Shown here in pieces: positions 1 to 34,669 of a stretch of 64,000 bases of DNA. The notes below the pieces were generated by a model. That model saw only the letters and a list, made by a program, of their open reading frames with translations, was not told the origin of the DNA and did not search any database. Both the position numbers and the translations under genes were made by a program. The stretch lies in contig NW_024466603.1 of assembly GCF_017591425.1 (NCBI RefSeq), forward strand, positions 48,955-112,954, read 5' to 3'. The DNA comes from Ochotona curzoniae. Lineage: Eukaryota > Chordata > Mammalia > Lagomorpha > Ochotonidae. Each line of letters starts with the position of its first letter. Position 1 is the first letter of the stretch.

Positions 1-2437
1 TCTTGTGAATTGGGTAAGTGTGTGACTGACTGACAGAGGAGATGGGACGGACCATGACTAACCCCCTTTTCTCTCTCCTGGTAAATAATTTGAAAAAAAA
101 AAAAAAAAAGGGTCTAACTTATCTAACAGGACTTGACCAGACCAGACTCCCCACCTCCGCTGAGAAAAGGTTCTTATAACATTTTCTTGTTGCTTAGTCT
201 TCAGCTTGCAGTGTTGTCCTGGCACTTATCAGGTCTAAAATACAGTATTCATTAACATGTTCAGTTAAATGTTAAATGTTAAATGTACTTTTTGTTTAAC
301 TAATTTACACCTCTAAATTCTTCAGTTTGAAACCAAGTCTCATGACTTTGAGGGTTCTAGTAGGATCCCTGGAACTCTCAAAGATTGAGACAAAAATTTG
401 GATAATATAATTGTCATTTAAAATAATTTGGATTATAATCTCACAATATTATAAAATTATGCTAAATTTATTGCATCATATATGCTATTAAATAGATGAG
501 TATTTATGCTCATTGGTTGAAATGTTTCCTACTCATAAAATTAATCCAGTTTGTAAACTATTTGTGTTCTTACTTACAAGGAAGTATGTGAGATTTTGCC
601 TTGCAGGAGAACAACGAATTCTTTAAAGATGTATAGTAAAATTGGTTATGATGTGTGTAATTTCTGAATTTTGCCTTTAAGACAATGAAGTTGGAGTCTG
701 ATCCCTTGTGAAGAACGACAGTGTTTTAACATCCTTATAATAACCTTTTAAGTTATTTTAACATTTAAGTTGTTTTAACATCTCCTTTTAAGTTATTTTC
801 ATCTTATTGATAACTAATAGATTCCTAAGTAGCCTCCCAAGACTACAGCCAAATTGAAGTTTTTTCAGCTCTCTTGACTTCAATAAAACAAACTATGGAG
901 AAGCTCCAGGCCTACCACCCATAGAAAAGGGCTTAGAAAGGCATGCTTGGAGTATGCCCTTTGTAAGGAATTTAGGACCTTGGCCTCCTTCAGGTCCTCA
1001 TTGTGATTCTTATCTGCCTTCTTTTGAGAAGGGGAAATTCCCAAATCAGCTAGAAGAAGGTTATTTGAAAAACTTCTCTTTCCAGGTTTTAAGGCAGGTT
1101 TGTGTTAAAATATGTTTCCATGAATTGGGAGAAATGGTTAAAATTGCTTAAAGCAGTTGTATTTAAAAGTTGGTATACTTTTATTTAAAAAATGTAGCAT
1201 TGCTTGTAGAATATTTTGTCCTACAGGGAAATGGCTATCATACAATGAAGAGGGCAAACTAGGACAAAATATTTTAAAGGTTTAAGCATGTTAAAACAGA
1301 GGAAGTCAGAAACGTTAAGAAATGAATCTTGTAAGCCTTATATATAATTGGCCATAATTTTAAAGATATTATTATAACATTGTTTAAGTTTTTAATGTTA
1401 ATACTTAATACATGCTGATGTTAGAATTGATATCTGTTCAAAAAGTTTTTTGAAGTGTGCATACATAGAAATGCTAGTAAATATCTAAAAATAAAAATAC
1501 CTGTATCTCTAATTTTGAAAGCTGTTAAAAAATTGAAGCATTGAATTTTAGATAATCTCTGCTTAATTGGTAACTTTGTCAATTGTCTATCCACCTTCAG
1601 TAAGCTCTATTTTTGTTCCAACCACTGAATTTGTTACAATTCTTAAAAAGTTATATGATTTTATCAAGAGCTATATTTTCAAGGGTATTTTCTGATATGT
1701 ATTTACTTTGAAATGTTTGGGTGATCATTTCTAAGTGATAAAAATTTCTTAACATGTTAGCATTCAAATCAGTCTGACTAAATGAATGGACATTATAATG
1801 ATGAATCTTCAATTAGATGCTTTAAGGCCTCTTGGCATATTAAATAGGTTTAATTCTTCTGGTTTTGGGATTTCTAGATGGGCCCCTAGCAGCCTCAAAG
1901 TCAGAAGAATGTGTTTCAAAGGTTGTATCTTTCAGTTGGTAAAGTTATTTAATTGTAGGACAGACAACTGATCTATTAAAAAAAAAAAAAAAGGGGGGGG
2001 CATTGCTAAAGTTTGATAGTAAACTATAGGTATGGTTTATTCATATTATTAAAAGCAAAATGTAATTCTAAACGATTGGTAATGTTAACACACTCAAGAG
2101 AATTGTCAAGTAGCTGTTACAAAAGTTGTTTTGTTTTATGTGTTACCTGATACACATGTACATGTTTATGTGGCAAGCTATGTAGTCTATCTTAATTGGC
2201 TTATAGATGAAAATATTCATAAATGTGAATTGCTAAGTTGAATCATTTCGAGAATAATGTATGGATATGCTATCAAGCTCTTGGAAAGGCATGTCTGTTT
2301 TAATTTCTTTAAGACCTACAAGGCCTGTTCAGCTGAATAATTCTGAATGTATTCAAATGGACTTACTATTATGAGTACAGTTTCAAAACTGGCCATAGGA
2401 CCCCAACTCCTCATGAACTAGATGGTAAAAGGAGCGA
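1..2437. other. AT-rich stretch without a recognised gene
   Basis: No open frame longer than 65 codons is present and no splice or family signal was recognised. The stretch is AT-rich and contains a 17-18-base A run near 95 and an A15-G8 run at 1978-2000. It lies directly upstream of retroviral env sequence in the same orientation. It may therefore be decayed retroviral interior or unrelated host DNA; I could not match it to either. Confidence 0.5.
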
Positions 2438-2753
2438 TGCTGTTTCTACGCCAATAAGTCCGGGATTGTTCGAGACCGAATCCAAAAACATTAAGAAGAG
2501 CTCGAAGCAGTGCAGAGAACTGTTTCAGAACCCTGTATGGACAGCCTGGGGTGGGATATTGCCATATTTACTTCCCTTGTTGGGACCCCTGATCAGCATT
2601 TTGTGGATTGTTTCCTGTGGTGCTTGTATTGTAAATCGTATCACTCAGTTTGTTCGGCAGCAGGTCCACTCCCTGTTGGCTAAACCCATCCAAATTCATT
2701 ATCATCAGCTCGATTTGGCAGATCAGGGCTACGATGAGCCCATAGCTGATTAA
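2438..2753 (+). pseudogene. Endogenous retrovirus env transmembrane-subunit remnant, frameshifted
   Basis: This is the tail end of a retroviral envelope gene, the part encoding the membrane-anchored fusion subunit. The cysteine-pair region and following helix are read in one frame from about 2438, which ends at a TAA at 2492-2494. The membrane-spanning segment and the cytoplasmic tail continue in a different frame and end at TAA 2751-2753. So at least one frameshift separates the two parts, and no surface subunit is recognisable upstream. The membrane segment is a long Leu/Ile/Pro-rich stretch followed by a basic tail with a tyrosine motif. This layout is typical of gamma-type envelopes, which are also carried by type D betaretroviruses. 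The copy is non-functional. Its class is inferred from this layout together with the adjacent LTR and the lysine-type primer site. Confidence 0.8.
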
Positions 2754-13489: not shown

Positions 13490-13930
13490 CCCAAACCTAC
13501 AACAGAGAGGCCGGGACGACGCCGGAGGGACGCGACCCCACACCACACCTGCCACCCGCGGGAGGCCGGCGCCCAGCCCACCTGGTGCGCTTGGAAGAGG
13601 CCGCAGCTGCAGCACCTGAGGACGCGGCAGCGCTGAGGCGGCGCCATGGGGCCTCCCACCCAGAGCCTCCCGCTCCCGCGCTCCCCTGCGCCCTCTTCCG
13701 GCCGTGCGCCTGCGCGCTCTGCCGGCCCGCCCCGCCCCCACAGGCCTCTGCTGGCCCAGGGGCGCCATCCCCACTTGAGGGGATCCGGAGGTTGTGGCTG
13801 CCCCAGCTGCACTTAGGGCCTTGGGTCGCAGTCAGCCGTTCACGGACTTGGCGGCTCTCCCAGGGCATTTCCTCCGGGTCGCGGTTGCCCATTGCTGTCC
13901 TCTGCGCAGGATCGCCAGGGAACAGAAGAG
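13490..13930. promoter_or_regulatory. CpG island, probable MRNIP promoter
   Basis: CpG dinucleotides are dense from about 13505 to 13745 (for example GACGACGCCGGAGGGACGCG and GGCCGTGCGCCTGCGCGC) and thin out by 13930, against a CpG-poor background. The minus-strand first coding exon lies inside it, so transcription probably starts on the minus strand between about 13650 and 13800. GC-box-like CCGCCC/CCCCGCCCC motifs occur at 13727-13740. There is no clear TATA box. Such islands are often bidirectional, so a plus-strand transcript is possible but unproven. Confidence 0.7.
13582..13647 (-). CDS. MRNIP: First coding exon of MRNIP (MRN complex interacting protein)
   Basis: Reading the minus strand from ATG (13647-13645), 22 codons end in CAG followed by a GTGGGC splice donor at 13581-13576. 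The peptide begins MAPPQR and ends RVLRCCSCGLFQAHQ. I recognise this as exon 1 of MRNIP (human C5orf45), which starts almost identically and continues in exon 2 with the second half of a zinc ribbon. The CCSC here supplies the first zinc-binding cysteine pair. MRNIP is a nuclear protein that binds the MRE11-RAD50-NBS1 complex and supports ATM signalling after double-strand breaks. The ATG has a G at -3 region context, a CpG island surrounds it, and the splice position fits the family. Exon 2 should lie to the left (lower coordinates). I searched 1-13500 by eye for its cysteine-rich segment without success, so either intron 1 runs past the window or the exon is an isolated copy. Confidence 0.75.
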
Positions 13931-14167
13931 CCGGGAAGGCTCCCCACACTGCGTCCAGAGACCCCTGAGGATGGAAACCCACACCGGGCACCTTGGAAAG
14001 GATGGGGCAACTTAGATAGGACTGTGGAGAATTTCCCAACGCCTAGCCCTTTCAAGAGTCTCCTCAGAGTCCCCTCAGCGCATGCTGCTGCCAGAACAAA
14101 ACAAAAATGGGGACAAAACCAAAAACATCAGAAAGCAGCCTGGACATCCACTGATTCCTAGGGCGGG
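13931..14167. other. Island shoulder, no gene recognised
   Basis: Short frames exist on both strands, but none carries a family signal. This would be the 5' flank of the minus-strand gene. Confidence 0.35.
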
Positions 14168-17468: not shown

Positions 17469-18259
17469 ATTACAACAGTAACATCACAATTGAGTGTGTA
17501 AGTGTGTGTGAATAGGAGTGTTCAATCAGCTATCCCACAGCAAGCTTCTGGCACTTCTTTGTTGTTCTACAAGTGAAATGCTTCTCAGTCCCAAGTGGGA
17601 AAGAGCCACAGAGAAGGACTTTACTTGGTGGTCCTCTTGCTGTGGCCCAAGGAGCTGCCTTCCCTTCCCTCAGCCTGAAGGCCTGCTTGGTCCACCCTGT
17701 CCCAGGCAGAATACCCAGCTCCTCTGCTTGCAGCCAGAATTCCAGGAGCAGAAGAGCAGACATGGGCTGGCCACACCACTGCTGCTTCTCTAGCCGGTCC
17801 TGGGACTCCTAGCAGCTACCCGGGAAGCACATTGCCCAGTGCCCAAGGCAGTGTGGAAAGCGCTGAGCTGAATGAGGAAGCTAGGCTCACTGCTCTCTTG
17901 CCTGCATCCCATGCCTGCACGCAAGAAACCTGGCCTGAGGATGCCCTCCCTGGTTTCCACAGCTCTGGGAGGCCTCCCCGCGGGAAAGCACACAATGGAC
18001 CCAGTGGACAGGAAGCAGAGAATGAAGCCGAAGCCGGAAGCGGGTAGAAAGCATGAGGTCTGCCTTGGTCCTCCAAAGGCCTTTGAATCCCCAGGAGTGG
18101 GGCTGCATGGGCAGGTGCCAGGGCAGGAGACAGGGTGAAGCCCAGCTCGCTGCAGGCCAGGAGGGCTGGAGCAAGGTCCCCATGTCACTTGGCGAAATGC
18201 AGGGTGCAGTCAAGGGCCAAGGCACAGAGAGAAGCAGTTCTGTGCTCTGGATCTCAGTG
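17469..18259. other. Upstream flank of the giant ORF, no gene recognised
   Basis: This is single-copy-looking sequence that becomes GC-rich from about 17600. Overlapping frames on both strands lack any family signal. It may contain upstream non-coding exon sequence of the giant gene, but I see no evidence for that. Confidence 0.4.
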
Positions 18260-18530
18260 GGGAACCCTGGCCTGAGGGGAAGGCGCGGCCGCCCCTGTCC
18301 ACCACGTCAAGCCGCCAGCGCCCCACAGCAGCCAGGGCCCTTCGCTGTCACGACCACGGGCGGCAGCGGGTTCCCCACGCGCCCCAGGCGCGCCAGCTCT
18401 GCCCCGCGGCCCACCCGCCTCGCTCCGTGCTCGCGCCGCCCTCAACACTCCAACGGAAACGTCTCGGAGCTCCCAAGAGCGTCGAACGCACCCCCCACAC
18501 TGAGCGCCGCCGTGCACCTTCAGGACCAAG
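18260..18530 (+). promoter_or_regulatory. CpG-rich block, probable promoter of the giant ORF
   Basis: CpG sites cluster from about 18283 (GGCGCGGCCGCCCC, a NotI site) to 18515 (TGAGCGCCGCCGTGC), then vanish. The block ends about 375 bases before the ATG of the giant ORF, and a CCAAT box lies at 18587-18591. The rest of the 15-64 kb region is CpG-poor. I infer that it is the start region of the plus-strand gene. Confidence 0.55.
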
Positions 18531-18594: not shown

Positions 18595-18664
18595 CCCCAC
18601 ACCCAGTACCCTACTCCCCACACCCGGTACCCTACTCCCCACACCCAGTACCCTGCTCCCCAGA
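18595..18664 (+). repeat. 21-bp tandem repeat, three copies
   Basis: The unit CCCCACACCCAGTACCCTACT is repeated three times with two substitutions, followed by a partial copy. It lies between the CpG-rich block and the ATG of the giant ORF. Confidence 0.9.
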
Positions 18665-18904
18665 CCTATCTGCTCTCTGAACTGAGTCTACAGGCGGGCG
18701 GGGGAAGCTCTCAGAGGCTTCCCCCGCCGCCAGCGGCAGGGGCTCCCACCCCACAAGGCCGGGAGCCTCTTGCTTTCTGAGGGCTCAGCCCTCAATGGGC
18801 TCATTTCCAACCTTCTCCTCTGAGGTGGTCCTCAGAGGAAGCAGCTGCTGCCGCCCCAGGCCACACCCGCTGGACCTGGAGAGGCAGGCCTTGCGTTGCT
18901 CAGG

Positions 18905-21900
18905 ATGGCTGCTGCCAGGGGTTGCCTGGCACTCCTTGCAGCAGTGCCCCAAGCGCTGCAGCAGGGTCTGCAGCAGGCCCTGTGGAAGTTGCTGCATTAT
19001 CTATGGGCCCCGCTGGCCCGGCCCCTGGCTTGGGTTCAGCAGAGGGCAGTATCAGGCCGCGCCCCAGAGGAGAGGGGCCCTACAAGCAGCAATGAGAGGG
19101 CATTTAAGCCCAGGGGCAGCCCCATAGGCTCAAATGAGCAGGACACACAGGACAGTAGCTCCCAGGCCAGTGGCAGGGCCCCTTCTGCTGTCAGTCACCT
19201 GAGCGTCAATAGGGGCCTGGATTCCTTTGTTCCCAAGCCAGGGCCTCTGAGGAAGACTACAAATCCTGAGAGATGGAGGAGGGAACCCGAATGCCCCTTC
19301 AGGGTGACATACACCCAGCACAACACCCTCACCAGCTCCTACAGCTCCAACGTGGAGACCTGGCTACTCAGGGCAATCGGGTCCCGAGCTCCAGTCAGGG
19401 CATCACAGGGCAAGATCCTCAAGAAACGCCCTCAGGTGGGCATCGCTGCCACCAGGTTTGCCCACAGGAACATCCTACAAAAGAAGGCTGTTGGTTGGGC
19501 CAAACCTGCATGGAAGCAACAGAACAAGACCCCCAAGGAAGGCCAAATCAACAGAGTCCACTCTTACATGGATCATAGGAACATCTCACAGAAGCCTGCC
19601 AGACAAAATACCAATGAGCCACGGACCAAGACATGCAAGAAAGGTCGGCTGCTCAGGGCCTCAGTCTACAGAGCGCTTCACAGGAACATCCCCAGTGGCA
19701 GAACCTCATCAGGCTTTAGGCACCTGCATGTAAAAGATGGCATGGCTTCCTTTGTGCCCAGGTCTGGGCCTCTGAGAAGAACCCCAAAACCTGAGAGACA
19801 GAAGAGGGAACCCAAGTTCCCCTTCAGGGTGACCTGCACCAAGTCCAACCCCAGCACCAGCTCCTACAGCTCCACCAAGGGGCCCTGGAGGCTCTCAGCA
19901 ATCAGGGTCCGAGCTCCTGTCAGGGCATCACAGGCCAAGACCACTAAGGAACGCACTCAGGGGGTCACTGTAGCCTCCAGGGTGCCCCACAGGGATATCC
20001 CAGAGGCCAAGGCTGAGGGCAAACCTCTCCAAACACCACATGCCAACACCTCTGGAGATGGGCAGGAGGACAGGGTCCCCTCCTCTACTGAGCCCTGCAA
20101 CAACCAACAGAAGGCTGAGGGCGAACATGGTGGTAGACTACATGACAAGACCTGCAAAAAAGGTCAGGTGGCTGGCACCAGCGGCTTCAGAGCAACCAAC
20201 AGCAGCATACTGCTGGAGAGCTCTGCAGCTAAACCCACCAGTGGACAACATGACAAGAACCCTGACAAAGGCCTGCCAGCAAGCACACGCACCGAGGAAG
20301 CAACCCACGGGTTGATTGATGAGAAGAGGAATGCTATAGCAGCCCCTGCCACAGCACCACAAGTGAAGACCAGAAATGAAGATGTGCAGGGAGTAATAAC
20401 CCTCCTGAAAGAATATGAAGAAAAAGCATTCCACTCCAAGATGCTCAGAAAAAAATCCCAGAAAAGTGTGGGAACTCCAGCCCAGAAAACATATCCACTA
20501 ACCACTGAGACAAGGCCACAGGATGGTCTCCCAGCCAAGAAGGAATACATCTCTTCAAGATACAAAACAATCTCACAGGGGAAGTCTGTGGCAACCCCGG
20601 CTCTGGAGCCACAGGCCAAGACAACCGGCAAAGACTTCCAGGCTGGAGTTCGAGACTCCAGGGCATCACGAAGGGACTGCAGACGGAAGAAAAAGGCTGC
20701 GACTGAATATGCATGTATGGCACAACATGCAGAACTGTCTGAGGGAGGCCAAGACAAATCTCCCACCAAAAGCAACAGTGTGGGCATCTCTGCCTCGGCA
20801 CCTCTCATGAAGACTCCTGAGGAAGGCTCGCAGGCAGAAAGCAAAAACCTGGAAGGCCTGCCAGCAAGGCTCCCCACATGCCCCGGGCACAGCTCTATTG
20901 CCCATGCTGAGACTACAGGTGCCTCTGGCCTGGCACCACAGGCCGAGCATCCCCAGGAGAAACTGCAGCCTGGCACCACAGCCTCCACTGCCCTGCACAA
21001 GAACAAGAACACTCAGTCTAAGAAGCAGGCAACTGGTAAACTCACCTGTGGACCCCAGAACAAGAAAACCGGCAAAGTCTCAGAGGCCAGTGTCATGGTC
21101 TCTGCTGAAAAAAGCCACGTGCCACAGGACACAATTGTGGACGACGGGTCCTTGGCACCGTTTGCTGACATCACTGAGGAAGCCCCACAGTCTGCAACTC
21201 CAGCCTCCAATACACCACAGTGCAATATCCAGGTCACGACAAATGATATTTTCGAACCTGCCAGGACACATGTCTCGTTCCCCAATGCTGGCACACAGTC
21301 CAGATCCCCTCCCTCAATTACACACGGCAACATCCCACATGAAAAGTCTGTGGGCCAATTGATCTCTGCACCACTTGATAACCCTCCTGAGCAATTCCTG
21401 CTCACTGGTGCTGCAGCCTCTTTGGTGCCCCAGGAGGAGAATAAAACTGCTGGTGTTTCTGTCTCAACACCACTTGCACAGACCTGTGAAGAAAGGTCTC
21501 AGGAAACAACGACCCCTGTGGAAGGCTGGCATGACAGAATCTCCAGCTCTGCAGTACACAGCAACAACGTGCAGAAGGCTGCTGGCACACCCACCCGGGC
21601 GTCACAGGCTGAGACCCCTGGGGAAGGCCTGCTAGTTGGCTCCACCACCTCTGAGGGGCCGCACAGCGACATTCGCAGGAGGAAGGCTGCAGACAAATAT
21701 GCCTGGGAGTCACTTGCAAACATCCCCAAGAAAGTCTCTCGGGGAGCAAAGATTTCCATGGAAGCCACACAAGAGAGAGTACCTGACTCCACAGAACATA
21801 GGGACACCACACAGGAGAAAGCTGCTGCCAAACCCACCCAGGAGCCAGATGCCAAAACCCATGAGACAGGCTGGCTGGTTGGTGCCCAAGCCTCCAGGGC

Positions 21901-24900
21901 ACCACACAGCGATATCCCCAGTGGCAGCACCTCGTCAGGCTTTGGGCGCCTCCATGCCAAAGAGGTCCTGGCTTCCTTTGTGCCCGGGTCTGAGCCTCTG
22001 AGAAGAACCCCAAAACCTGAGAGACAGAAGAGGGAACCCGAGTTCCCCTTCAGGATGACCTGCACCAAGTCCAACCCCAGCACCAGCTCCTACAGCTCCA
22101 CCAAGGGGCCCTGGAGGCTCTCAGCAATCAGGACCCAAGCTCCTGTCAGGGCATCACAGGCCAAGACCACTAAGGAACGCACTCAGGGGGTCACTGTAGC
22201 CTCCAGGGTGCCCCACAGGGATATCCCAGAGGCCAAGGCTGAGGGCAAACCTCTCCAAACACCACATGCCAACACCTCTGGAGATGGGCAGGAGGACAGG
22301 GTCCCCTCCTCTACTGAGCCCTGCAACAACCAACAGAAGGCTGAGGGCGAACATGGTGGTAGACTACATGACAAGACCTGCAAAAGAGTTCAGGTTTCTC
22401 GCACCAGGATCTTCACAGCAGCACTAATTAGAATACTGCTGGAGAGCTCTGCAGCCAAACCCACCAGTGGACAACATGACAAGAACCCTGACAAAGGCCT
22501 GCCAGCAAGCACACACACCAAGGAAGCAACCCGCAGCTGGATCCATCAGAAGAGGAATGATATTGGCGTTCCTGCCACAGCACCACATATCAGGATCACT
22601 AATAAAGACATGCAGGGAATAACAACCCCCCTGAAAGACAAGGTAGAAAAAGCATTCCACTCCAAGATGATCAAGAAAAACTCCCAGAAAAGTGTGGGAA
22701 TTCCTGCCAGGAAAACACAAGCAATGACAGCTGACATAGCACCACAGGATGGCCTCGTAGAAACCAGGGAAGACAACTCTTCAAGATACAAAACAATCTC
22801 ACAGGGGAAGTCTGTGGCAACTCCTTTTATGATTCCACAGGCCAAAACACCCAGCAAAAACCTGCAGGCTGATGTCCCAGACTCCAAGGTATTCCACAGA
22901 GAAGGCAGGCAGAAAAGAAAGGCTGCGGCTGAATATGCATGTATGGCACAACATGCAGAACTGTCTGAGGGAGGCCAAGACAAATCTCCCACTTCTCAAG
23001 GCCCGTATTGGGCCATGCCCAAGAGGAAGGTCATGGGCTCACCTTCCTCGGCACAACACGTGCACAACTCAGCCACACAGGTCGGAGCCCCCAAATCCAG
23101 CAAGCTCAGCAACACTGTGTACCAGCAGATGGTGGACAAACTCGCCAAGCTGTCTATTGCCAAATCACCCAAGAAACACCCGAGGACCAGTGCCCCTGCA
23201 TCCAGGGAGTGGCACAGAGACACCAACAGAAACAGGAGCAGTGTGGTCATCTCTGCCTCGGCACCTCTCATGAAGACTCCTGAGGAAGGCTCGCAGGCAG
23301 AAAGCAACACCCGGGAAGGCCTGCCAGCAAGGCTCCACACATGCCCCGGGCACAGCTCTATTGCCCATGCTGAGACTACAGGTGCCTCTGGCCTGGCACC
23401 ACAGGCTGAGCATCCCCAGGAGAAACTGCAGCCTGGCACCACAGCCTCCACTGCCCTGCACAAGAACAAGAACACTCAGTCTAAGAAGCAGGCAACTGGT
23501 AAACTCACCTGTGGACCCCAGAACAAGAAAACCGGCAAAGTCCCAGAGGCCAGTGTCGTGGTCTCTGCTGAAAAAAGCCACGTGCCACAGGACACAATTG
23601 TGGACGACGGGTCCTTGGCACCGTTTGCTGACATCTCAGAGGGAGGTCCTGAAGAAGCAGTGACCACCGCACAAGGCCAGGATGAAAGCGGCAATGCCTC
23701 TTCAGATAAGAGCAACATCCCACAGGAGAAGGCTGAGGGAGCTCCTGGCGTAGTGCCACAGGCCATGACACCTGACGTAGGCCCACGGGCTGGGACCCCA
23801 GCCACCACTGTGCTGCACAGCAACATTGACCTTGAGAAGGCAGTGGTGGGTGACCTCGCCCATGCACCTCACGGACAGGAATTCCAGAAACTCTCCAAGG
23901 CCAGTTCCACGGTCTCCGTGGAAAACAACCACGCACCACAAAAGACAGTTGCAGATGACTGGTCCTTGGCACCATTTTCAGACAACCTCGACCAAGGCCT
24001 GCAGGAAAGAAAGAACTCCCTGCAAGGCCGGGAAGAAAGGGCTTACACCTCTCCACAAGAGAGCAAAATCCTGCAGGGAAAGTCTGTGCCAACTCGAGCT
24101 CTGGAGCCACAGGCCAAGACACCTGGCAAACACCTGCAAGCTGGTGTCCCAGACTCCAAGGTATTCCACAGAGAAGGCAGGCAAAAGAGAAAGGCTGCGG
24201 CTGAATATGCATGTATGGCACAACATGCAGAACTGTCTGAGGGAGGCCAAGACAAATCTCCCACTTCTCAAGGCCCGTATTGGGCCATGCCCAAGAGGAA
24301 GGTCATGGGCTCACCTTCCTCGGCACAACACGTGCACAACTCAGTCACACAGGTTGGAGTCCCCAAATCCAGCAAGCTCAGCAACACTGTGTACCAGCAG
24401 ATGGTGGACAAACTCGCCAAGCTGTCTATTGCCAAATCACCCAAGAAACACCCGAGGACCAGTGCCCCTGCATCCCGGAAGTGGCACAGAGACACCAACA
24501 GAAACAGGAGCAGTGTGGTCATCTCTGCCTCGGCACCTCTCATGAAGACTCCTGAGGAAGGCTCGCAGGCAGAAAGCAACACCCTGGAAGGCCTGCCAGC
24601 AAGGCTCCCCACATGCCCCGGGCACAGCTCTATTGCCCATGCTGAGACTACAGGTACCTCTGGCCTGGCACCACAGGCTGAGCATCCCCAGGAGAAACTG
24701 CAGCCTGGCACCACAGCCTCCACTGCCCTGCACAAGAACAAGAACACTCAGTCTAAGAAGCAGGCAACTGGTAAACTCACCTGTGGACCCCAGAACAAGA
24801 AAACCGGCAAAGTCTCAGAGGCCAGTGTCGTGGTCTCTGCTGAAAAAAGCCACGTGCCGCAGGACACAATTGTGGATGATGGGTCCTTGGCACCGTTTGC

Positions 24901-27900
24901 TGACATCTCAGAGGGAGGTCCCGAAGAAGCAGTGACCACCGCACAAGGCCAGGATGAAAGCGGCAACGCCTCTTCAGATAAGAGCAACATCCCACAGGAG
25001 AAGGCTGAGGGAGCTCCTGGCGTAGTGCCACAGGCCATGACACCTGACGTAGGCCCACGGGCTGGGACCCCAGCCACCACTGTGCTGCACAGCAACACTG
25101 AGCTTGACAAGGCAGTGGTGGGTGATCTCGCCCATGCACCTCATGGACAGGAATTCCAGAAACTCTCAGAGGCCAGTGCCACAGTCTCTGGTGAAAAAAG
25201 CCACGTGCCGCAGGACACAATTGTGGATGACTGGTCCTGGGCACCGTTTGTCGACATTCCTGAGGAAGCCCCACAGTCTGCAACTCCAGCATCCAATACA
25301 CCACAGTGCAATATCCAGGTCACGACAAACGATGCTTTCGAACCTGCCAGGACACATGTCTCGTTCCCCAATGCTGGCACACAGTCCAGCTCCTCTCCCT
25401 CAATTACACATGGCAACATCCCACATGAAAAGTCTGTGGGCCAACAATTGATCTCTGCACCACTTGATAACACTCCTGAGCAATTCCTGCTCACTGGTGC
25501 TGCAGCCTCTTTGGTGCCCCAGGAGGAGAATAAAACTGCTGGTGTTTCTGTCTCAACACCACTTACACAGACCTGTGAAGAAAGCCCTAATGAAACAACG
25601 ACCCCTGTGGAAGGCTGGCATGACAGAATCTCCAGCTCTGCAGTACACAGCAACAACGTGCAGAAGGCTGCTGGCACACCCACCCGGGCGTCACAGTCTG
25701 AGACCCCTGGGGAAGGCCTGCTAGTTGGCTCCACCACCTCTGAGGGGCCACACAGCAACATTCGCAGGAGGAGGAAGGCTGCAGACAAATATGCCTGGGA
25801 GTCACTTGCAAACATCCCCAAGAAAGTCTCTCGGGGAGCAAAGATTTCCATGGAAGCCACACAAGAGAGAGTACCTGACTCCACAGAACATAGGGACACC
25901 ACACAGGAGAAAGCTGCTGCCAAACCCACCCAGGAGCCAGATGCCAAAACCCATGAGACAGGCTGGCTGGTTGGTGCCCAAGCCTCCAGGGCACCACACA
26001 GCGATATCCCCAGTGGCAGCACCTCGTCAGGCTTTGGGCGCCTCCATGCCAAAGAGGTCCTGGCTTCCTTTGTGCCCGGGTCTGAGCCTCTGAGAAGAAC
26101 CCCAAAACCTGAGAGACAGAAGAGGGAACCCGAGTTCCCCTTCAGGATGACCTGCACCAAGTCCAACCCCAGCACCAGCTCCTACAGCTCCACCAAGGGG
26201 CCCTGGAGGCTCTCAGCAATCAGGACCCAAGCTCCAGTCAGGGCATCACAGGCCATGACCACTAAGGAATACCCTCAATGGCGCATCCCAGCCTCCAGTA
26301 TGCCTCACTGGGACATCCCACAAGGAAAGAATGCGGGCAAATGTCTCCAAACAGCATACACCATGATCCCCGGATATGGCCTAAGAAAAGCAAAGAGCCC
26401 TGAGCTAGGCTGGGAGGACAGGTTCCTTTCCTCATTGGAATGTAGGTACATCACACAGCAGGGTTTATGGTCACCCACCCAGGTGCCACAGGCCAAGTCC
26501 CGCAAGGAACATCAACTGCTTGGATACCCTGCTTCCAGATTGCTTCACGGCTGTACCCCCCGGTCCTTGGGCCTCAAGCTGCCCAAGATGGCTGGTGACA
26601 ATGGTCACCTGGCACTCCTCGCACAACTGCCACAGATGCTGCAGCAAGGTCTGCAACAGACTCTGGGGAAGGTGCTGCATTCCTTATGGGTTCCACTGGC
26701 CCGCCGCCTATCTTGGGGTCACCAGAGGGCAGCAGTAGGCTGCACCTCTGAGCAGAACTTCCATACAGACAGCAATGAGGCAGCACCAAAGCCTGGGGGC
26801 AACCCCACAGTCCAAGATGGACAGGATACACAGGATTACCACACCCAGGACAGTGGCAGTGCCCGTTCTGCCTTTAGGCGCCTTCGTGTCAATGGGGTCC
26901 TGGCTTCCTTTGTGCCCAAGCCTGGGCCTCTGAGAAGAACCCCAGATCCTGAAAGACAGAGCAGGGAACCCAAGTTCCCCCTCAGGGTGACTTTCATCAA
27001 GTGCAACCCCAGCACCAGCTCCCACAGCTCCACCAAGGTGCCCTGGGTGATCAGAGCAATCAGGGCCCAAGCTCCAGACAATGAATCACAAGATGGACAA
27101 GATACACAGGATTACCACACCCAGGACAGTGGCAGTGCCCGTTCTGCCTTTAGGCGCCTTCGTGTCAATGGGGTCCTGGCTTCCTTTGTGCCCAAGCCTG
27201 GGCCTCTGAGAAGAACCCCAAATCCTGAAAGACAGAGCAGGGAACCCGAGTTCCCCCTCAGGGTGACTTTCACCAAGTGCAACCCCAGCACCAGCTCCCA
27301 CAGCTCCACCAAGGTGCCCTGGATGATCAGAGCAATCAGGGCCCAAGCTCCAGACAATGAATCACAGGATGGACAAGATACACAGGATTACCACACCCAG
27401 GACAGTGGCAGTGCCCGTTCTGCCTTTAGGCGCCTTCGTGTCAATGGGGTCCTGGCTTCCTTTGTGCCCAAGCCTGGGCCTCTGAGAAGAACCCCAAATC
27501 CTGAAAGACAGAGCAGGGAACCCGAGTTCCCCCTCAGGGTGACTTTCACCAAGTGCAACCCCAGCACCAGCTCCCACAGCTCCACCAAGGTGCCCTGGGT
27601 GATCAGAGCAATCAGGGCCCAAGCTCCAGTCAATGAATCACAGGGCAAGACCCCCAGGGAACACCCTCAGGGGGTCACCCCTGCCACCAGAGTGGCCCAC
27701 AGGGACATCCCACAAGGGAAGTCTGAGAGCAAACCTCTCCAGACACCACAGGCCAAGACCCCTGATGCAGGTTGGGTGGACAGGGTCCCCTCCTGTATGA
27801 AACGCACCATCAGCCCTCAGAAAGCTTCAGGTCAAGCTGGTGGTGCACCACATGCCAAGTCCTGTGAGGAAGGCCAGTTGGTCAGCGCCCAGGCAGCCAG

Positions 27901-28141
27901 GGTGCTCCACAGCCACATCCCACAGGAGAAGGCTGCAAGCACTGCTGTGGGGAAGACTGAATTCCTGAAACCTCCTGCACTGGAGCGGGATCCATCCAGA
28001 CCCCAGAAGCGGAAGGTCCCTCTGCCGCTGCCGCGGCCCTGCAAGAGACGAAAGCTACTCATCCTGCCCGAGGCACCCGACCTTGGATGCAGAGTCACTG
28101 CCAAGGAAGTAGACGATGAACGGCATGTTGTGAGTTACTGA
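18905..28141 (+). CDS. Giant POM121-like protein, 3078 residues, single open frame
   Basis: ATG 18905 sits in a strong context (A at -3, G at +4); the frame extends only three codons further upstream, to a TTG. Visible parts: a hydrophobic/amphipathic N-terminal helix (residues 6-47) and seven modules centred on SFVP at residues 107, 282, 1024, 2388, 2668, 2760 and 2852. A second N-terminal unit begins at residue 2562. The last 49 residues are basic, with KRK and KRRK and a LPEAPDLGCRVTAKE motif. POM121, a nuclear pore membrane protein, has DSSGSGHSAF, NGVPASFVPKPG, TSSYSST and LGYSITAED in the same order, so family membership is well supported. The FG-repeat half of POM121 is absent and no clear transmembrane segment is seen. 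The remainder is Ser/Thr/Pro/Lys-rich, probably disordered, with degenerate repeats of about 34-36 residues. The basic tail suggests a nuclear location. Function is unknown. An open frame this long, with all internal offsets divisible by three, argues strongly for coding. Confidence 0.85.
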   Translation: MAAARGCLALLAAVPQALQQGLQQALWKLLHYLWAPLARPLAWVQQRAVSGRAPEERGPTSSNERAFKPRGSPIGSNEQDTQDSSSQASGRAPSAVSHLSVNRGLDSFVPKPGPLRKTTNPERWRREPECPFRVTYTQHNTLTSSYSSNVETWLLRAIGSRAPVRASQGKILKKRPQVGIAATRFAHRNILQKKAVGWAKPAWKQQNKTPKEGQINRVHSYMDHRNISQKPARQNTNEPRTKTCKKGRLLRASVYRALHRNIPSGRTSSGFRHLHVKDGMASFVPRSGPLRRTPKPERQKREPKFPFRVTCTKSNPSTSSYSSTKGPWRLSAIRVRAPVRASQAKTTKERTQGVTVASRVPHRDIPEAKAEGKPLQTPHANTSGDGQEDRVPSSTEPCNNQQKAEGEHGGRLHDKTCKKGQVAGTSGFRATNSSILLESSAAKPTSGQHDKNPDKGLPASTRTEEATHGLIDEKRNAIAAPATAPQVKTRNEDVQGVITLLKEYEEKAFHSKMLRKKSQKSVGTPAQKTYPLTTETRPQDGLPAKKEYISSRYKTISQGKSVATPALEPQAKTTGKDFQAGVRDSRASRRDCRRKKKAATEYACMAQHAELSEGGQDKSPTKSNSVGISASAPLMKTPEEGSQAESKNLEGLPARLPTCPGHSSIAHAETTGASGLAPQAEHPQEKLQPGTTASTALHKNKNTQSKKQATGKLTCGPQNKKTGKVSEASVMVSAEKSHVPQDTIVDDGSLAPFADITEEAPQSATPASNTPQCNIQVTTNDIFEPARTHVSFPNAGTQSRSPPSITHGNIPHEKSVGQLISAPLDNPPEQFLLTGAAASLVPQEENKTAGVSVSTPLAQTCEERSQETTTPVEGWHDRISSSAVHSNNVQKAAGTPTRASQAETPGEGLLVGSTTSEGPHSDIRRRKAADKYAWESLANIPKKVSRGAKISMEATQERVPDSTEHRDTTQEKAAAKPTQEPDAKTHETGWLVGAQASRAPHSDIPSGSTSSGFGRLHAKEVLASFVPGSEPLRRTPKPERQKREPEFPFRMTCTKSNPSTSSYSSTKGPWRLSAIRTQAPVRASQAKTTKERTQGVTVASRVPHRDIPEAKAEGKPLQTPHANTSGDGQEDRVPSSTEPCNNQQKAEGEHGGRLHDKTCKRVQVSRTRIFTAALIRILLESSAAKPTSGQHDKNPDKGLPASTHTKEATRSWIHQKRNDIGVPATAPHIRITNKDMQGITTPLKDKVEKAFHSKMIKKNSQKSVGIPARKTQAMTADIAPQDGLVETREDNSSRYKTISQGKSVATPFMIPQAKTPSKNLQADVPDSKVFHREGRQKRKAAAEYACMAQHAELSEGGQDKSPTSQGPYWAMPKRKVMGSPSSAQHVHNSATQVGAPKSSKLSNTVYQQMVDKLAKLSIAKSPKKHPRTSAPASREWHRDTNRNRSSVVISASAPLMKTPEEGSQAESNTREGLPARLHTCPGHSSIAHAETTGASGLAPQAEHPQEKLQPGTTASTALHKNKNTQSKKQATGKLTCGPQNKKTGKVPEASVVVSAEKSHVPQDTIVDDGSLAPFADISEGGPEEAVTTAQGQDESGNASSDKSNIPQEKAEGAPGVVPQAMTPDVGPRAGTPATTVLHSNIDLEKAVVGDLAHAPHGQEFQKLSKASSTVSVENNHAPQKTVADDWSLAPFSDNLDQGLQERKNSLQGREERAYTSPQESKILQGKSVPTRALEPQAKTPGKHLQAGVPDSKVFHREGRQKRKAAAEYACMAQHAELSEGGQDKSPTSQGPYWAMPKRKVMGSPSSAQHVHNSVTQVGVPKSSKLSNTVYQQMVDKLAKLSIAKSPKKHPRTSAPASRKWHRDTNRNRSSVVISASAPLMKTPEEGSQAESNTLEGLPARLPTCPGHSSIAHAETTGTSGLAPQAEHPQEKLQPGTTASTALHKNKNTQSKKQATGKLTCGPQNKKTGKVSEASVVVSAEKSHVPQDTIVDDGSLAPFADISEGGPEEAVTTAQGQDESGNASSDKSNIPQEKAEGAPGVVPQAMTPDVGPRAGTPATTVLHSNTELDKAVVGDLAHAPHGQEFQKLSEASATVSGEKSHVPQDTIVDDWSWAPFVDIPEEAPQSATPASNTPQCNIQVTTNDAFEPARTHVSFPNAGTQSSSSPSITHGNIPHEKSVGQQLISAPLDNTPEQFLLTGAAASLVPQEENKTAGVSVSTPLTQTCEESPNETTTPVEGWHDRISSSAVHSNNVQKAAGTPTRASQSETPGEGLLVGSTTSEGPHSNIRRRRKAADKYAWESLANIPKKVSRGAKISMEATQERVPDSTEHRDTTQEKAAAKPTQEPDAKTHETGWLVGAQASRAPHSDIPSGSTSSGFGRLHAKEVLASFVPGSEPLRRTPKPERQKREPEFPFRMTCTKSNPSTSSYSSTKGPWRLSAIRTQAPVRASQAMTTKEYPQWRIPASSMPHWDIPQGKNAGKCLQTAYTMIPGYGLRKAKSPELGWEDRFLSSLECRYITQQGLWSPTQVPQAKSRKEHQLLGYPASRLLHGCTPRSLGLKLPKMAGDNGHLALLAQLPQMLQQGLQQTLGKVLHSLWVPLARRLSWGHQRAAVGCTSEQNFHTDSNEAAPKPGGNPTVQDGQDTQDYHTQDSGSARSAFRRLRVNGVLASFVPKPGPLRRTPDPERQSREPKFPLRVTFIKCNPSTSSHSSTKVPWVIRAIRAQAPDNESQDGQDTQDYHTQDSGSARSAFRRLRVNGVLASFVPKPGPLRRTPNPERQSREPEFPLRVTFTKCNPSTSSHSSTKVPWMIRAIRAQAPDNESQDGQDTQDYHTQDSGSARSAFRRLRVNGVLASFVPKPGPLRRTPNPERQSREPEFPLRVTFTKCNPSTSSHSSTKVPWVIRAIRAQAPVNESQGKTPREHPQGVTPATRVAHRDIPQGKSESKPLQTPQAKTPDAGWVDRVPSCMKRTISPQKASGQAGGAPHAKSCEEGQLVSAQAARVLHSHIPQEKAASTAVGKTEFLKPPALERDPSRPQKRKVPLPLPRPCKRRKLLILPEAPDLGCRVTAKEVDDERHVVSY
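19199..19411 (+). repeat. POM121-like module 1
   Basis: This contains SFVPKPGPLRK, an NPERWRREPE variant of the basic stretch and LTSSYSS. It lies 106 residues after the initiator, the same spacing as module 5 after the internal methionine at 26588. It is the most diverged of the seven. Confidence 0.85.
19690..20768 (+). repeat. Internal block A, copy 1
   Basis: This 1.08-kb block contains SFVP module 2 and is repeated at 21916-22994, exactly 2226 bp (742 codons) later. Similarity is patchy. About 19930-20160 is nearly identical to its partner, while the next 40 bases are strongly diverged, then identity returns. That mosaic looks like partial gene conversion. Confidence 0.9.
20769..21165 (+). 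repeat. Internal block B, short copy 0
   Basis: From ISASAPLMKTPEEG to SLAPFAD this matches the later block B copies (offset 2463 bp to copy 1). Just before it a 237-bp (79-codon) segment present in the other copies is missing, an in-frame indel. Confidence 0.9.
21102..22155 (+). repeat. Internal block C, copy 1
   Basis: This about 1.05-kb block includes SFVP module 3 (SFVP at residue 1024) and returns at 25188-26247. The offset grows from 4086 to 4092 bp because copy 2 gained two single codons (one Gln, one Arg). Both length changes keep the frame. Confidence 0.9.
21916..22994 (+). repeat. Internal block A, copy 2
   Basis: Partner of 19690-20768 at +2226 bp. It overlaps the end of block C copy 1, showing that the duplications are nested rather than a simple tandem array. 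Confidence 0.9.
22795..23970 (+). repeat. Internal block B, copy 1
   Basis: Repeated at exactly +1272 bp (424 codons) with only scattered substitutions over most of its length, so this tandem duplication is recent. It contains the 79-residue segment that copy 0 lacks, with the helix-like TVYQQMVDKLAKLSIAK. Confidence 0.9.
24067..25242 (+). repeat. Internal block B, copy 2
   Basis: Partner of 22795-23970. The two differ by single-base changes that include both synonymous and amino-acid-changing ones (for example Ala to Val twice, and Glu to Lys, within 130 codons). Confidence 0.9.
25188..26247 (+). repeat. Internal block C, copy 2
   Basis: Partner of 21102-22155, with two extra codons. It carries SFVP module 4 (SFVP at residue 2388). 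After it the sequence departs into a unique stretch (about 26260-26580) leading to the second N-terminal unit. Confidence 0.9.
26588..26815 (+). repeat. Second N-terminal-like unit inside the giant ORF
   Basis: The peptide starting at ATG 26588 (residue 2562) mirrors the protein's own start: hydrophobic LALLA, then QLPQMLQQGLQQTLGK, LHSLW and PLARRLSW, against LALLA, VPQALQQGLQQALWK, LHYLW and PLARPLAW at the N-terminus. Distance to the following SFVP is 106 residues in both. The bases before the two ATGs also resemble each other (GCTGCCCAAG against GTTGCTCAGG). I infer that a second gene copy was fused in frame and its 5' leader became coding. Confidence 0.85.
26816..27643 (+). repeat. 276-bp tandem array, three copies, SFVP modules 5-7
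   Basis: Three head-to-tail units start at 26816, 27092 and 27368, each exactly 276 bp (92 codons). They encode DGQDTQDYHTQDSGSARSAF, then a VNGVLASFVPKPGPLRR core and SSHSSTK. They are nearly identical, so the array is young. It is the part of the protein that most closely resembles POM121. Confidence 0.95.
27974..28138 (+). other. POM121-like basic C-terminal tail of the giant ORF
   Basis: The last residues hold PSRPQKRKVPLPLP and PCKRRKLLILPEAPDLG, then VTAKEVDDE. POM121 has the same arrangement (RKRKV, basic cluster, LPPPPQLGYSITAEDLD). The two basic clusters about a dozen residues apart form a plausible bipartite nuclear localisation signal. After DDER the match to POM121 stops, just before a possible splice donor. 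Confidence 0.8.
28130..28135 (+). other. Possible splice donor overlapping the last codons
   Basis: GTGAGT at 28130-28135 is a consensus donor falling exactly between codons, four codons before the stop. A second donor-like GTAAGC lies at 28161 after the stop. If the first is used, the protein would not end in VVSY but continue in a downstream exon. The preceding TT is not the usual AG, so this is uncertain. Confidence 0.3.
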
Positions 28142-28987
28142 ATCAACACAGTCCTGAGTGGTAAGCATGGTCCCTGTCCGGCATGCCCCTGCTCCCTGGC
28201 CCTTTCCCATTCCCTGTCAGGTACCTGCCCTCCTCCTTGTGCAGGGGTCGGAAGGAAGAGGGCTCTGGCCTGCTCTTCTTGCCTCTGTCCATTGGGGGTG
28301 GCCACTCTGGGGCTCCTCCAGGAAGCCTGCGTTGTTGGGCCAGGCCATAGGACCTGGGTGTCCTTTCCTGGGGCCCAGGGCTCCTTACTGTGCCGTGAGA
28401 CCCCAGCTAGTGTCTGGGATGAGGGTTGTGCAAGGTCATCCTGAGTCTGCATTTGAGGGGGAGCCCAGGATACCCCCTACTCCCAGCCAGCAGCCTGGCC
28501 CCAAAGATAGTCAGCTCCCACAAGGGGCTTCATGGTACCACTTGGTTGCTTGAGGCAGCAGGGCTGGGCCCCAAGTGGTAGCAGAGGGACAGGTTTCCTG
28601 GGTAGCCCCTCCAAGCCTGAGCCCACAGGATGCCTCTTCCTGCTTCTCTGACCCATGCATGGCAGCTTTGGCTTCCCAAAGGAAGCCAGCACACATGTGC
28701 ACAGGGACATGCAGCCTGAGAAATGGATCACTCCACAGTGTAATGATCACCTGAGAGTTCCAGAAGGACTCACAGCCATGGGCTGTAGGGGGTCTGCCTC
28801 TTGTTTGGGTTCTAGGTGTGGCAGATACAGGCACAGAGGAGCCTGAGCTTTGCTCAGGTGTGGTGTCGCTCTGCAAGGGAGGCAGAAAGTGTTGGAGGAA
28901 CAGGCTCCTTGGGGTCACAGAAAAGGCACAGTGTCCTGAGATCAAAGGTCAGCTGATGCTCCAATGGTTTTCCAGATAATGTCACTT
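28142..28987. other. GC-rich 3' flank of the giant ORF
   Basis: No AATAAA signal is seen in this stretch and no second gene is recognised. It could be 3'UTR or, if the donor at 28130 or 28161 is used, intron. Confidence 0.4.
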
Positions 28988-33814: not shown

Positions 33815-33870
33815 GGTCAGCACCCACGTGGGAGACCCAGAGGCCTCTGACTCCTAGCTTTGGATCAGCA
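33815..33870 (+). mobile_element. CSINE internal fragment, sense
   Basis: Only the CACGTGGGAGACCCAGAGG to TTTGGATCAGC part of a CSINE is recognisable. Confidence 0.5.
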
Positions 33871-34669
33871 TGAGGAGGACAGCCAGTTTCAGAAAGAGTC
33901 AAATCTTCCCGAATCATTGCACAGTGCCCTTGCCTCAGCTGCTGCCTACTTCAGGGGTTGGGAGTGGATGGATGGGACAGAACAGGAGAGTCTTACGGGG
34001 GCAGGGCCAAGCCTGCAGGTTCTTACTCTCTTGGAGCCATTCCTCCCAGCAGATGCCAAAGTTTCTTCTGAGATGTGGCAAAGCACTGGCCACTTCTGGG
34101 TGCCATTGCCACAGGTCACAGGCAGAATCCCTGTTCAGGGCTTATCTCTCAGGCAGGGTCCTCAGCTTGGAGAGAAGAGGCCGTGACAGCCCTGTCTCAC
34201 CTCCTCTGAATGTGACACAAAAGAGACTGGGTGGGCTCCAGGGGCAGAGTGCAGGTCAGAGCTTGCCCACTCTTGGTGGCCACCCCAACCTCCTGGGCTC
34301 CAAAGACAGAACACACGTGTCCACCTCTGAGCCGATGACTGTTAAGCACAGGTGTGTGATGCCTGCCTGTGGCCTGGTGCTTGTGGGAGCCACAGGCAGG
34401 ACACTTGGTCTTCAGTGTGGTGATAACGGAGGCATCTCTCAAGGCTGGTTGCTCTTGGGAGGTTGCTGCTGTTCCCTCCCCATCTCTCTCTCAGCTTCCT
34501 TCTCTGTTGGTAAACGCTGGGGCTGTGATGCCACCTGCCCTGAGACCCTCCCCAGAGTCAGGTTGATGTCTGCAGCAGGCCCTTGCGCCTCCAGAATTGT
34601 GAACTGAATGTATTTCTTTTCTGAGTTTGACACTGTCCCAAAGCAGGTTAAGTTGATGCTGCCTATTCT
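33871..34669. other. GC-rich spacer, no gene recognised
   Basis: Frames of up to 245 codons occur (33870-34607), but they overlap in all three phases and carry no family signal, so I treat them as chance frames in GC-rich DNA. Confidence 0.35.

What the first reader, a model, noticed from the sequence alone, without database searches (positions are those of the whole stretch)
18905..28141. A 3078-residue single-frame protein derived from the nuclear pore protein POM121
The sequence shows an uninterrupted 9.2-kb frame. From knowledge of POM121, its DSGS..SAF, VNGV.ASFVPKPG, TSS.SST and KRK...LG..VTA motifs appear in the same order. It lacks the FG-repeat half of POM121 and is far longer than POM121 (about 1200 residues) or the POM121-like genes I know (about 300-1050). 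I infer a lineage-specific giant derivative, perhaps a germline or chromatin protein. No stop codon in 3078 codons is very unlikely without selection, even allowing for recent internal duplication.
Basis: partly seen in the sequence, partly recalled or inferred. Interest (0 to 1): 0.92.

Follow-up and report, generated by a model that had tools for sequence, protein, structure and literature searches.

The report
Giant repeat-swollen POM121-like nuclear pore relative
This mammalian genome holds an unbroken 3,078-codon frame for a greatly lengthened relative of a short nuclear-pore-like protein; the frame appears to have been kept open by selection although its amino acids change almost freely.

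Summary
The 3078-codon frame at 18905-28141 is real; the five other frames there hold 39-136 stops. It belongs to Pfam family POM121 (E 4.4e-45). The relatives found are 11 short mammalian proteins, mostly called POM 121-like, of 325-621 aa. No giant relative appeared among 7983 scored candidates. The protein has seven copies of the family's SAF..NGV..SFVPKPG..TSSYSST module, two copies of a helical head, a probably disordered linker built by in-frame duplications, and one KRK/VTA tail. Stops present in only one of two duplicated blocks: 0 in this frame, 23-52 in each control frame. Yet dN/dS between blocks is about 1. So openness looks selected while residues are almost free. Similarity to relatives continues seven residues past the stop, and the family's first ~120 residues were not found in the window. 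Best reading: a real, expanded POM121-like gene making a soluble, multivalent nuclear protein that works like sPom121, perhaps in testis. Expression, lagomorph orthologues and function are untested. A striking new variant of a known kind.

The parts
18905..28141 (+). 3078-codon open reading frame, giant POM121-like protein (stop TGA included)
18824..18904 (+). 27 further open codons upstream in the same frame, after in-frame stops at 18683-18685 and 18821-18823; start context CAGGATGG at 18905
18905..19054 (+). head 1: hydrophobic N-terminus, residues 1-50; its Met lines up with an internal Met in 9 of 10 aligned relatives (..LK-MASAKGKL)
26588..26737 (+). head 2: second copy of the head, residues 2562-2611; modelled as a helix over residues 16-50 of the piece (10-residue block pLDDT up to 90)
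19166..19411 (+). POM121 module 1 (SFVP at residue 107); module ends were set by me as SFVP -19 to +62
19691..19936 (+). POM121 module 2 (SFVP at residue 282)
21917..22162 (+). POM121 module 3 (SFVP at residue 1024)
26009..26254 (+). POM121 module 4 (SFVP at residue 2388)
26849..27094 (+). POM121 module 5 (SFVP at residue 2668), first of three 276-bp near-identical units
27125..27370 (+). POM121 module 6 (SFVP at residue 2760)
27401..27646 (+). POM121 module 7 (SFVP at residue 2852), part of the best-scoring family match together with the tail
22760..23983 (+). linker block (residues 1286-1693), 90% aa identical to residues 1710-2117
24032..25255 (+). linker block (residues 1710-2117), copy of residues 1286-1693
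21002..22288 (+). block 700-1128, duplicated as residues 2062-2492
25088..26380 (+). block 2062-2492, copy of residues 700-1128
28004..28138 (+). tail QKRKV..KRRK..VTAKEVDDER, residues 3034-3078, matching the family's KRKIPLLL..VTAEDLDLEK
28139..28162 (+). stop TGA at the place of the W in the relatives' ..IQWINKVLEG; similarity goes on for seven residues beyond it
18001..18500 (.). CpG-rich stretch (GC 0.67, CpG o/e 0.61), possible promoter; function inferred only

Best explanation
A real protein-coding gene of the POM121-like branch. An ancestral short protein (helical head, SFVPKPG/TSSYSST module, disordered linker, KRK-VTA tail) grew in this lineage through repeated in-frame tandem duplications, one of which copied head and module. 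It became a 3078-residue soluble protein with two heads, seven modules and one tail. Proposed mechanism: like soluble sPom121, it is imported through its basic stretches. Its modules, taken to correspond to POM121's NLS domain, then bind importins, Nup98 or the Nup107/160 complex off the pore. With seven modules on a flexible chain it would act as a multivalent tether or sink for these partners, most likely in male germ cells. Shown: family, architecture, duplications, retention of an open frame beyond neutral expectation. Inferred: expression, nuclear location, partners, tissue. I put gene and family at about 0.9 and the sPom121-like multivalent mechanism at about 0.35; the stated confidence covers both.
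For: Pfam POM121 E 4.4e-45. Seven significant matches to a profile of 10 relatives built without this sequence, each containing SFVP and TSS.SS. Across 11 block pairs, stops present in only one copy number 0 in the real frame against 28, 52, 28, 23 and 40 in the other five. Simulated neutral stop gains sum to 20.8 over the 11 pairs, minimum 10 in 300 runs, observed 0. The 9 distinct repeat spacings are all multiples of three. The head is predicted helical and the rest has low confidence, as disorder would give. Three relatives show repeats in or beside the same linker: sea lion 36 identical residues at period 41, Myotis 24 at period 14, hamster 17 at period 24 within an Ala/Gly/Asp array. sPom121 precedent: its residues 1-204 are necessary and sufficient for joining Nup98, and TM-less forms arose at least three times in mammals, with signal only in testis among the tissues examined in two monkeys (PMC4888837 sections 7, 10, 14). 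[quoted passage not shown]).
Against: dN/dS between blocks is close to 1: 14 of 15 pairs lie inside the neutral simulation range (one at its very edge), one just below it; over the seven modules it is 1.26-1.35. So most residues show no purifying selection. In one search a one-copy stop in a control frame can be the loss of an older stop as well as a gain, so that contrast overstates gains; the simulation does not have this flaw, but some of its 11 pairs overlap. No transcript or lagomorph orthologue was seen. The family's first ~120 residues are not found in the window and a stop cuts off the last ancestral residues. Knockouts of two mouse POM121-like genes are fertile (PMC13253961). The FG domain that plays a secondary part in sPom121-Nup98 contact is absent.
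Confidence: 0.5

Rival explanations
1. A coding gene whose product has no specific partner-binding role: selection only removes truncated (toxic or unstable) forms, and the linker grows by replication slippage and unequal exchange without adaptive value.
For: dN/dS about 1 nearly everywhere and 1.26-1.35 over the modules; other repeats arose in or beside the same linker in sea lion, Myotis and hamster; two mouse family members are dispensable for fertility (PMC13253961).
Against: SFVP and TSS.SS are kept in all seven modules and the tail still matches the family. Some 12-codon windows of the modules have dN/dS 0.43-0.82, others up to 2.48; no significance test was made on them.
Confidence: 0.35
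2. A recently dead gene: an expanded coding gene that lost its start and end not long ago and now drifts, the open frame being a leftover.
For: Family N-terminus not found; stop before the ancestral end; dN/dS about 1; no relative of this length among the scored candidates.
Against: Zero stops in 3078 codons, the youngest blocks included. The missing N-terminus can be explained by use of the conserved internal Met, context CAGGATGG. Losing the last eight residues is a mild change.
Confidence: 0.12
3. An assembly artefact: repeats expanded or stitched wrongly by the assembler.
For: Three 276-bp units at 96-97% aa identity and kilobase blocks at about 90% are hard for short-read assembly.
Against: Many block pairs differ by 10-50% or more in protein sequence, far beyond read error, and an artefact would not keep the frame at each joint; the window has no N. 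Only the number of the youngest units is in real doubt.
Confidence: 0.04
4. An open frame by chance in T-poor repeats.
For: Low T at codon position 1 and long antisense runs.
Against: Markov-generated sequences of this composition reach at most 495 codons in 900 trials; control frames of the same duplicated blocks hold many one-copy stops; the family similarity lies in this frame.
Confidence: 0.01

Closest known systems
POM 121-like proteins of mammals (colugo, Geoffroy's cat, camel, galago, hyena, bat, armadillo, sea lion, dog, hamster; P0002-P0012, 325-621 aa)
   Same: Same head, module, linker and KRK/VTA tail in the same order; Pfam PF15229 given for all 11 and checked here for four; repeats in or beside the linker in three
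   Different: One module (SSYSST doubled in sea lion) and 325-621 aa; family N-terminus MGSY/MGGY.. present in 10 of 11; here seven modules, two heads, 3078 aa, no such N-terminus
POM121 / POM121C transmembrane nucleoporin
   Same: POM121 family domain
   Different: No FG repeats; highest 19-residue mean hydrophobicity only 0.41. The human protein was not retrieved: comparison with it rests on recall and on PMC8712647 and PMC4888837
sPom121, the soluble off-pore isoform
   Same: No transmembrane part seen; keeps a POM121-family region that I take to correspond to the NLS domain which recruits Nup98 (PMC4888837; correspondence not aligned here)
   Different: sPom121 is an isoform of POM121 with an FG domain and one NLS domain; this is a separate open frame with seven modules and no FG repeats
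POM121L12 and POM121L2 (mouse genes of one or two exons, male-enriched)
   Same: Long uninterrupted coding sequence; same family by name
   Different: Orthology not tested: none of their sequences was retrieved; mouse deletions span 671 and 3331 bp (PMC13253961) against 9.2 kb here

Membership tests
POM121 family (Pfam PF15229) | Profile match above the curated cut-off | tested here: met
   154.7 bits against a cut-off of 27; residues 1-2560 alone 36.9 bits
Mammalian POM 121-like proteins | SAF..NGV..SFVPKPG module followed by TSSYSST | tested here: met
   Seven significant matches; three of them depart from NGV
Mammalian POM 121-like proteins | KRKIPLLL..VTAEDLDLEK tail, ending ..WINKVLEG | tested here: met
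   Tail matched to profile position 394 of 406; the end (W and seven residues) is at and beyond the stop
Mammalian POM 121-like proteins | N-terminal ~120 residues MGSYLSR..FLGVFSS | tested here: not met
   No significant profile match in six frames of the window, with or without reading through stops; 2 of 10 pairwise scores upstream were above nearly all shuffles
POM121 transmembrane nucleoporin | C-terminal FG repeats | tested here: not met
   2 FG dipeptides, no GLFG or FxFG in 3078 aa
POM121 transmembrane nucleoporin | N-terminal transmembrane segment | tested here: inconclusive
   Highest 19-residue mean hydrophobicity 0.41, in the head; no dedicated predictor was run
sPom121-like soluble factor | Nuclear import and Nup98 / Nup107-160 binding | not testable with these tools
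   Needs cell experiments; basic clusters at residues 245, 589, 924, 2287 and 3047 are only suggestive
POM121L12 or POM121L2 orthologue | Shared synteny or reciprocal best match | not tested
   No such sequence was retrieved; no cellular gene family was seen in the 11 other frames scanned, of 130 others listed

The most novel reading that the evidence does not exclude
A lineage-specific multivalent off-pore nucleoporin: seven POM121 NLS-domain-like modules on one disordered chain act as a scaffold that gathers importin, Nup98 or Nup107/160 in germ-cell nuclei. Selection keeps its length and valency (an open frame) while its residues turn over neutrally, so the protein is selected for being long and many-headed rather than for its sequence.
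Probability: 0.25. Interest if true: 0.78.

Novelty: new variant of a known kind. Interest (0 to 1): 0.56.

Why it matters
If expressed, it would be about 2.5 times the length that I recall for POM121 and five times the longest relative found here. It would also be a clean natural case of a coding frame protected from stops while amino-acid change is almost neutral, and would let one test whether valency or length of a disordered chain is the selected trait. It would add internal duplication in a POM121-like gene to the ways in which pore-free POM121 proteins arise in mammals; PMC4888837 describes alternative start sites and upstream exons.

Tried and rejected
Chance frame: rejected. A decayed ancestral N-terminus directly upstream: early tblastn alignments hinted at it, but a profile of the family N-termini found nothing significant in six frames of read-through tiles (best independent E-value 8.2), and only 2 of 10 pairwise scores beat nearly all shuffles (P0004 1/200, P0007 2/200; the other eight 53-118 of 200). 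I dropped the claim.

A neighbouring gene: 11 of the 130 other stop-to-stop frames of 100 aa or more were scanned with Pfam and gave only one retroviral env remnant; the other 119 were not scanned. Rfam gave no match over the window at its gathering thresholds. Solved structures: no match to the family profile at E 0.1. A fold search was not run because the model is mostly low-confidence (mean pLDDT 58). Viral contigs: no match to the peptide patterns used.

Indels between blocks aligned without codon knowledge: 9 of 12 gap runs are multiples of three; the other three (4, 1 and 1 bases) lie in an alignment that runs past the ungapped homology and in one of 56% identity. This measure is weak. 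Blastp of the protein against itself showed no internal repeats because the full-length match hides them; it was replaced by a diagonal scan.

Dropped rows: P0005 (fragment of the camel protein) was left out of alignments and profiles. The protein searches scored only the ~8000 candidates sharing most words, within set length ranges, so distant relatives can be missed.

Full report
Observation. The frame starts with ATG at 18905 (context CAGGATGG), ends with TGA at 28139-28141 and holds 3078 codons with no stop. The other five frames of the same DNA hold 62, 136, 63, 39 and 101 stops. In 900 Markov-generated sequences (orders 1-3, 300 each) no run exceeded 495 codons. The frame is open for 27 codons more upstream, to the stop at 18821-18823; another in-frame stop lies at 18683-18685.

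Family. Pfam PF15229 (POM121) matches at E 4.4e-45 with 8 stretches. A search with residues 2562-3078 found 8 proteins and one with the last 960 residues found 3. All 11 are mammalian, carry PF15229 and have 325-621 aa; 9 are named nuclear envelope pore membrane protein POM 121, 121-like or 121C-like, two are unnamed. These two searches admit proteins of about 284-1680 aa, so full-length POM121 (about 1200 aa, recalled) could have been a candidate but is not listed. A search with the whole protein, which admits about 1690-5390 aa, found none among 7983 scored candidates. No lagomorph protein appeared in any of the three. Against a profile of 10 relatives (this sequence and P0005 left out), seven stretches are significant, the best being residues 2818-3074 with 104.8 bits.

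Architecture. (i) A head at residues 1-50 and again at 2562-2611. The Met of both lines up with an internal Met in 9 of 10 aligned relatives (..LK-MASAKGKL; hamster has V), and the two copies are 55% identical over 168 residues. AlphaFold2 on head 2 plus module 5 gives a helix at residues 16-50 with 10-residue block pLDDT up to 90 and low confidence elsewhere, mean 58. (ii) Seven modules, with SFVP at residues 107, 282, 1024, 2388, 2668, 2760 and 2852. (iii) An S/A/P/T/K-rich linker made of copied blocks: 229-646 = 971-1388 (70%), 624-764 = 1445-1585 = 1869-2009 (91-92%), 700-1128 = 2062-2492 (76-92%), 1286-1693 = 1710-2117 (90%), 2637-2821 = 2729-2913 (97%). (iv) One tail, QKRKV..VTAKEVDDER. 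Similarity to relatives goes on for seven residues past the stop, which stands where they have W in ..IQWINKVLEG. The first ~120 residues of the relatives were not found in the window.

Is the frame selected? For: all 9 distinct spacings between repeat copies are multiples of three. In 11 pairs of duplicated blocks (6078 bases compared), stops found in one copy only number 0 in the real frame and 28, 52, 28, 23 and 40 in the other five. This control uses the very same substitutions, but in a control frame a one-copy stop may also be a lost old stop. Simulating neutral change with the observed substitution spectrum gives 20.8 expected new stops over the 11 pairs, minimum 10 in 300 runs, observed 0; some pairs overlap, so they are not all independent. 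Against: dN/dS. The 15 pairs tested gave 1.01, 1.09, 1.13, 0.92, 0.99, 0.54, 0.93, 1.24, 3.20 (9 substitutions), 0.99, 0.59, 0.70, 0.71, 1.25 and 1.77. Fourteen lie within the neutral simulation range (0.71, from 3 substitutions, at its edge) and one (0.59, pair 1286-1693/1710-2117) just below it. Over the seven aligned modules dN/dS is 1.35 for all pairs and 1.26 for four distinct lineages; by 12-codon window it runs from 0.43 to 2.48, undefined in two windows without silent differences. So truncation seems to have been removed while most replacements were tolerated. That is what one expects of a disordered chain in which length, composition or number of modules counts. It is equally what a protein of no specific binding role would show (first rival).

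Mechanism. No FG repeats (2 FG dipeptides; no GLFG or FxFG), K+R 423 against D+E 297, highest 19-residue hydrophobicity 0.41. It is thus unlikely to be a pore-membrane or FG nucleoporin. The closest working model in print that I saw is sPom121: Franks et al. 2016 (PMC4888837; outline and sections 7, 10 and 14 read) report that amino acids 1-204 of sPom121, the NLS part, are necessary and sufficient to join Nup98 in the nucleoplasm, that sPom121 with Nup98 draws Nup133 to sites off the pore, and that TM-less forms arose at least three times in mammals, with signal only in testis among the tissues examined in marmoset and macaque. A review (PMC8712647; passages) gives the contacts of POM121 with importins, Nup155 and Nup160. 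Equating the present module with that NLS part rests on family membership and on recall of the human protein, not on an alignment to it. I infer a soluble, multivalent sPom121-like tether. [quoted passage not shown] passages); this favours a germline setting but warns that the function may be dispensable.

A wider pattern. Repeats also arose in or beside the same linker in sea lion (36 identical residues at period 41, which doubles SSYSST), Myotis (24 residues at period 14) and hamster (17 at period 24 in an Ala/Gly/Asp array); in the other eight of the 11 relatives the longest exact self-match at periods 6-79 is 3-4 residues. The giant form may be the extreme of a tendency of this gene.

Limits. 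No RNA, no second lagomorph and no genome-wide search could be used (the own-genome search did not complete eight times). On print: no paper of the open-licence library holds both 'POM121-like' and 'Ochotona'. A looser search listed 8 of 1238 papers, none of those 8 with POM121, and searches listed nothing on this gene in pikas by title or abstract start; papers further down those lists, and subscription journals, were not seen.

Noticed in passing
window 2337-2753 (+): Remnant of a retroviral envelope transmembrane part (Pfam TLV_coat, E 2.9e-8); described only.
   Followed up: partly
window 12884, 16735, 17193, 45241, 56600: Five matches (0-3 mismatches) to a 19-base core recalled from the lagomorph C short interspersed repeat, 0.01 expected by chance; fits a lagomorph origin.
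   Followed up: partly
window 13501-14000: A second CpG-rich stretch (GC 0.71, CpG o/e 0.68) about 5 kb upstream of the frame, a possible promoter or first exon.
   Followed up: no
window 33858-34607 (+): A 249-codon open run without a Pfam match at E 0.01; unexplained.
   Followed up: partly
P0010, P0008, P0012 (relatives): Internal repeats in or beside the same linker in sea lion, Myotis and hamster: this gene seems prone to linker growth in several mammals.
   Followed up: partly
window 18605-18670: Short tandem repeat (units like CACACCCAGTACCCTACTCCC) just upstream of the frame.
   Followed up: no
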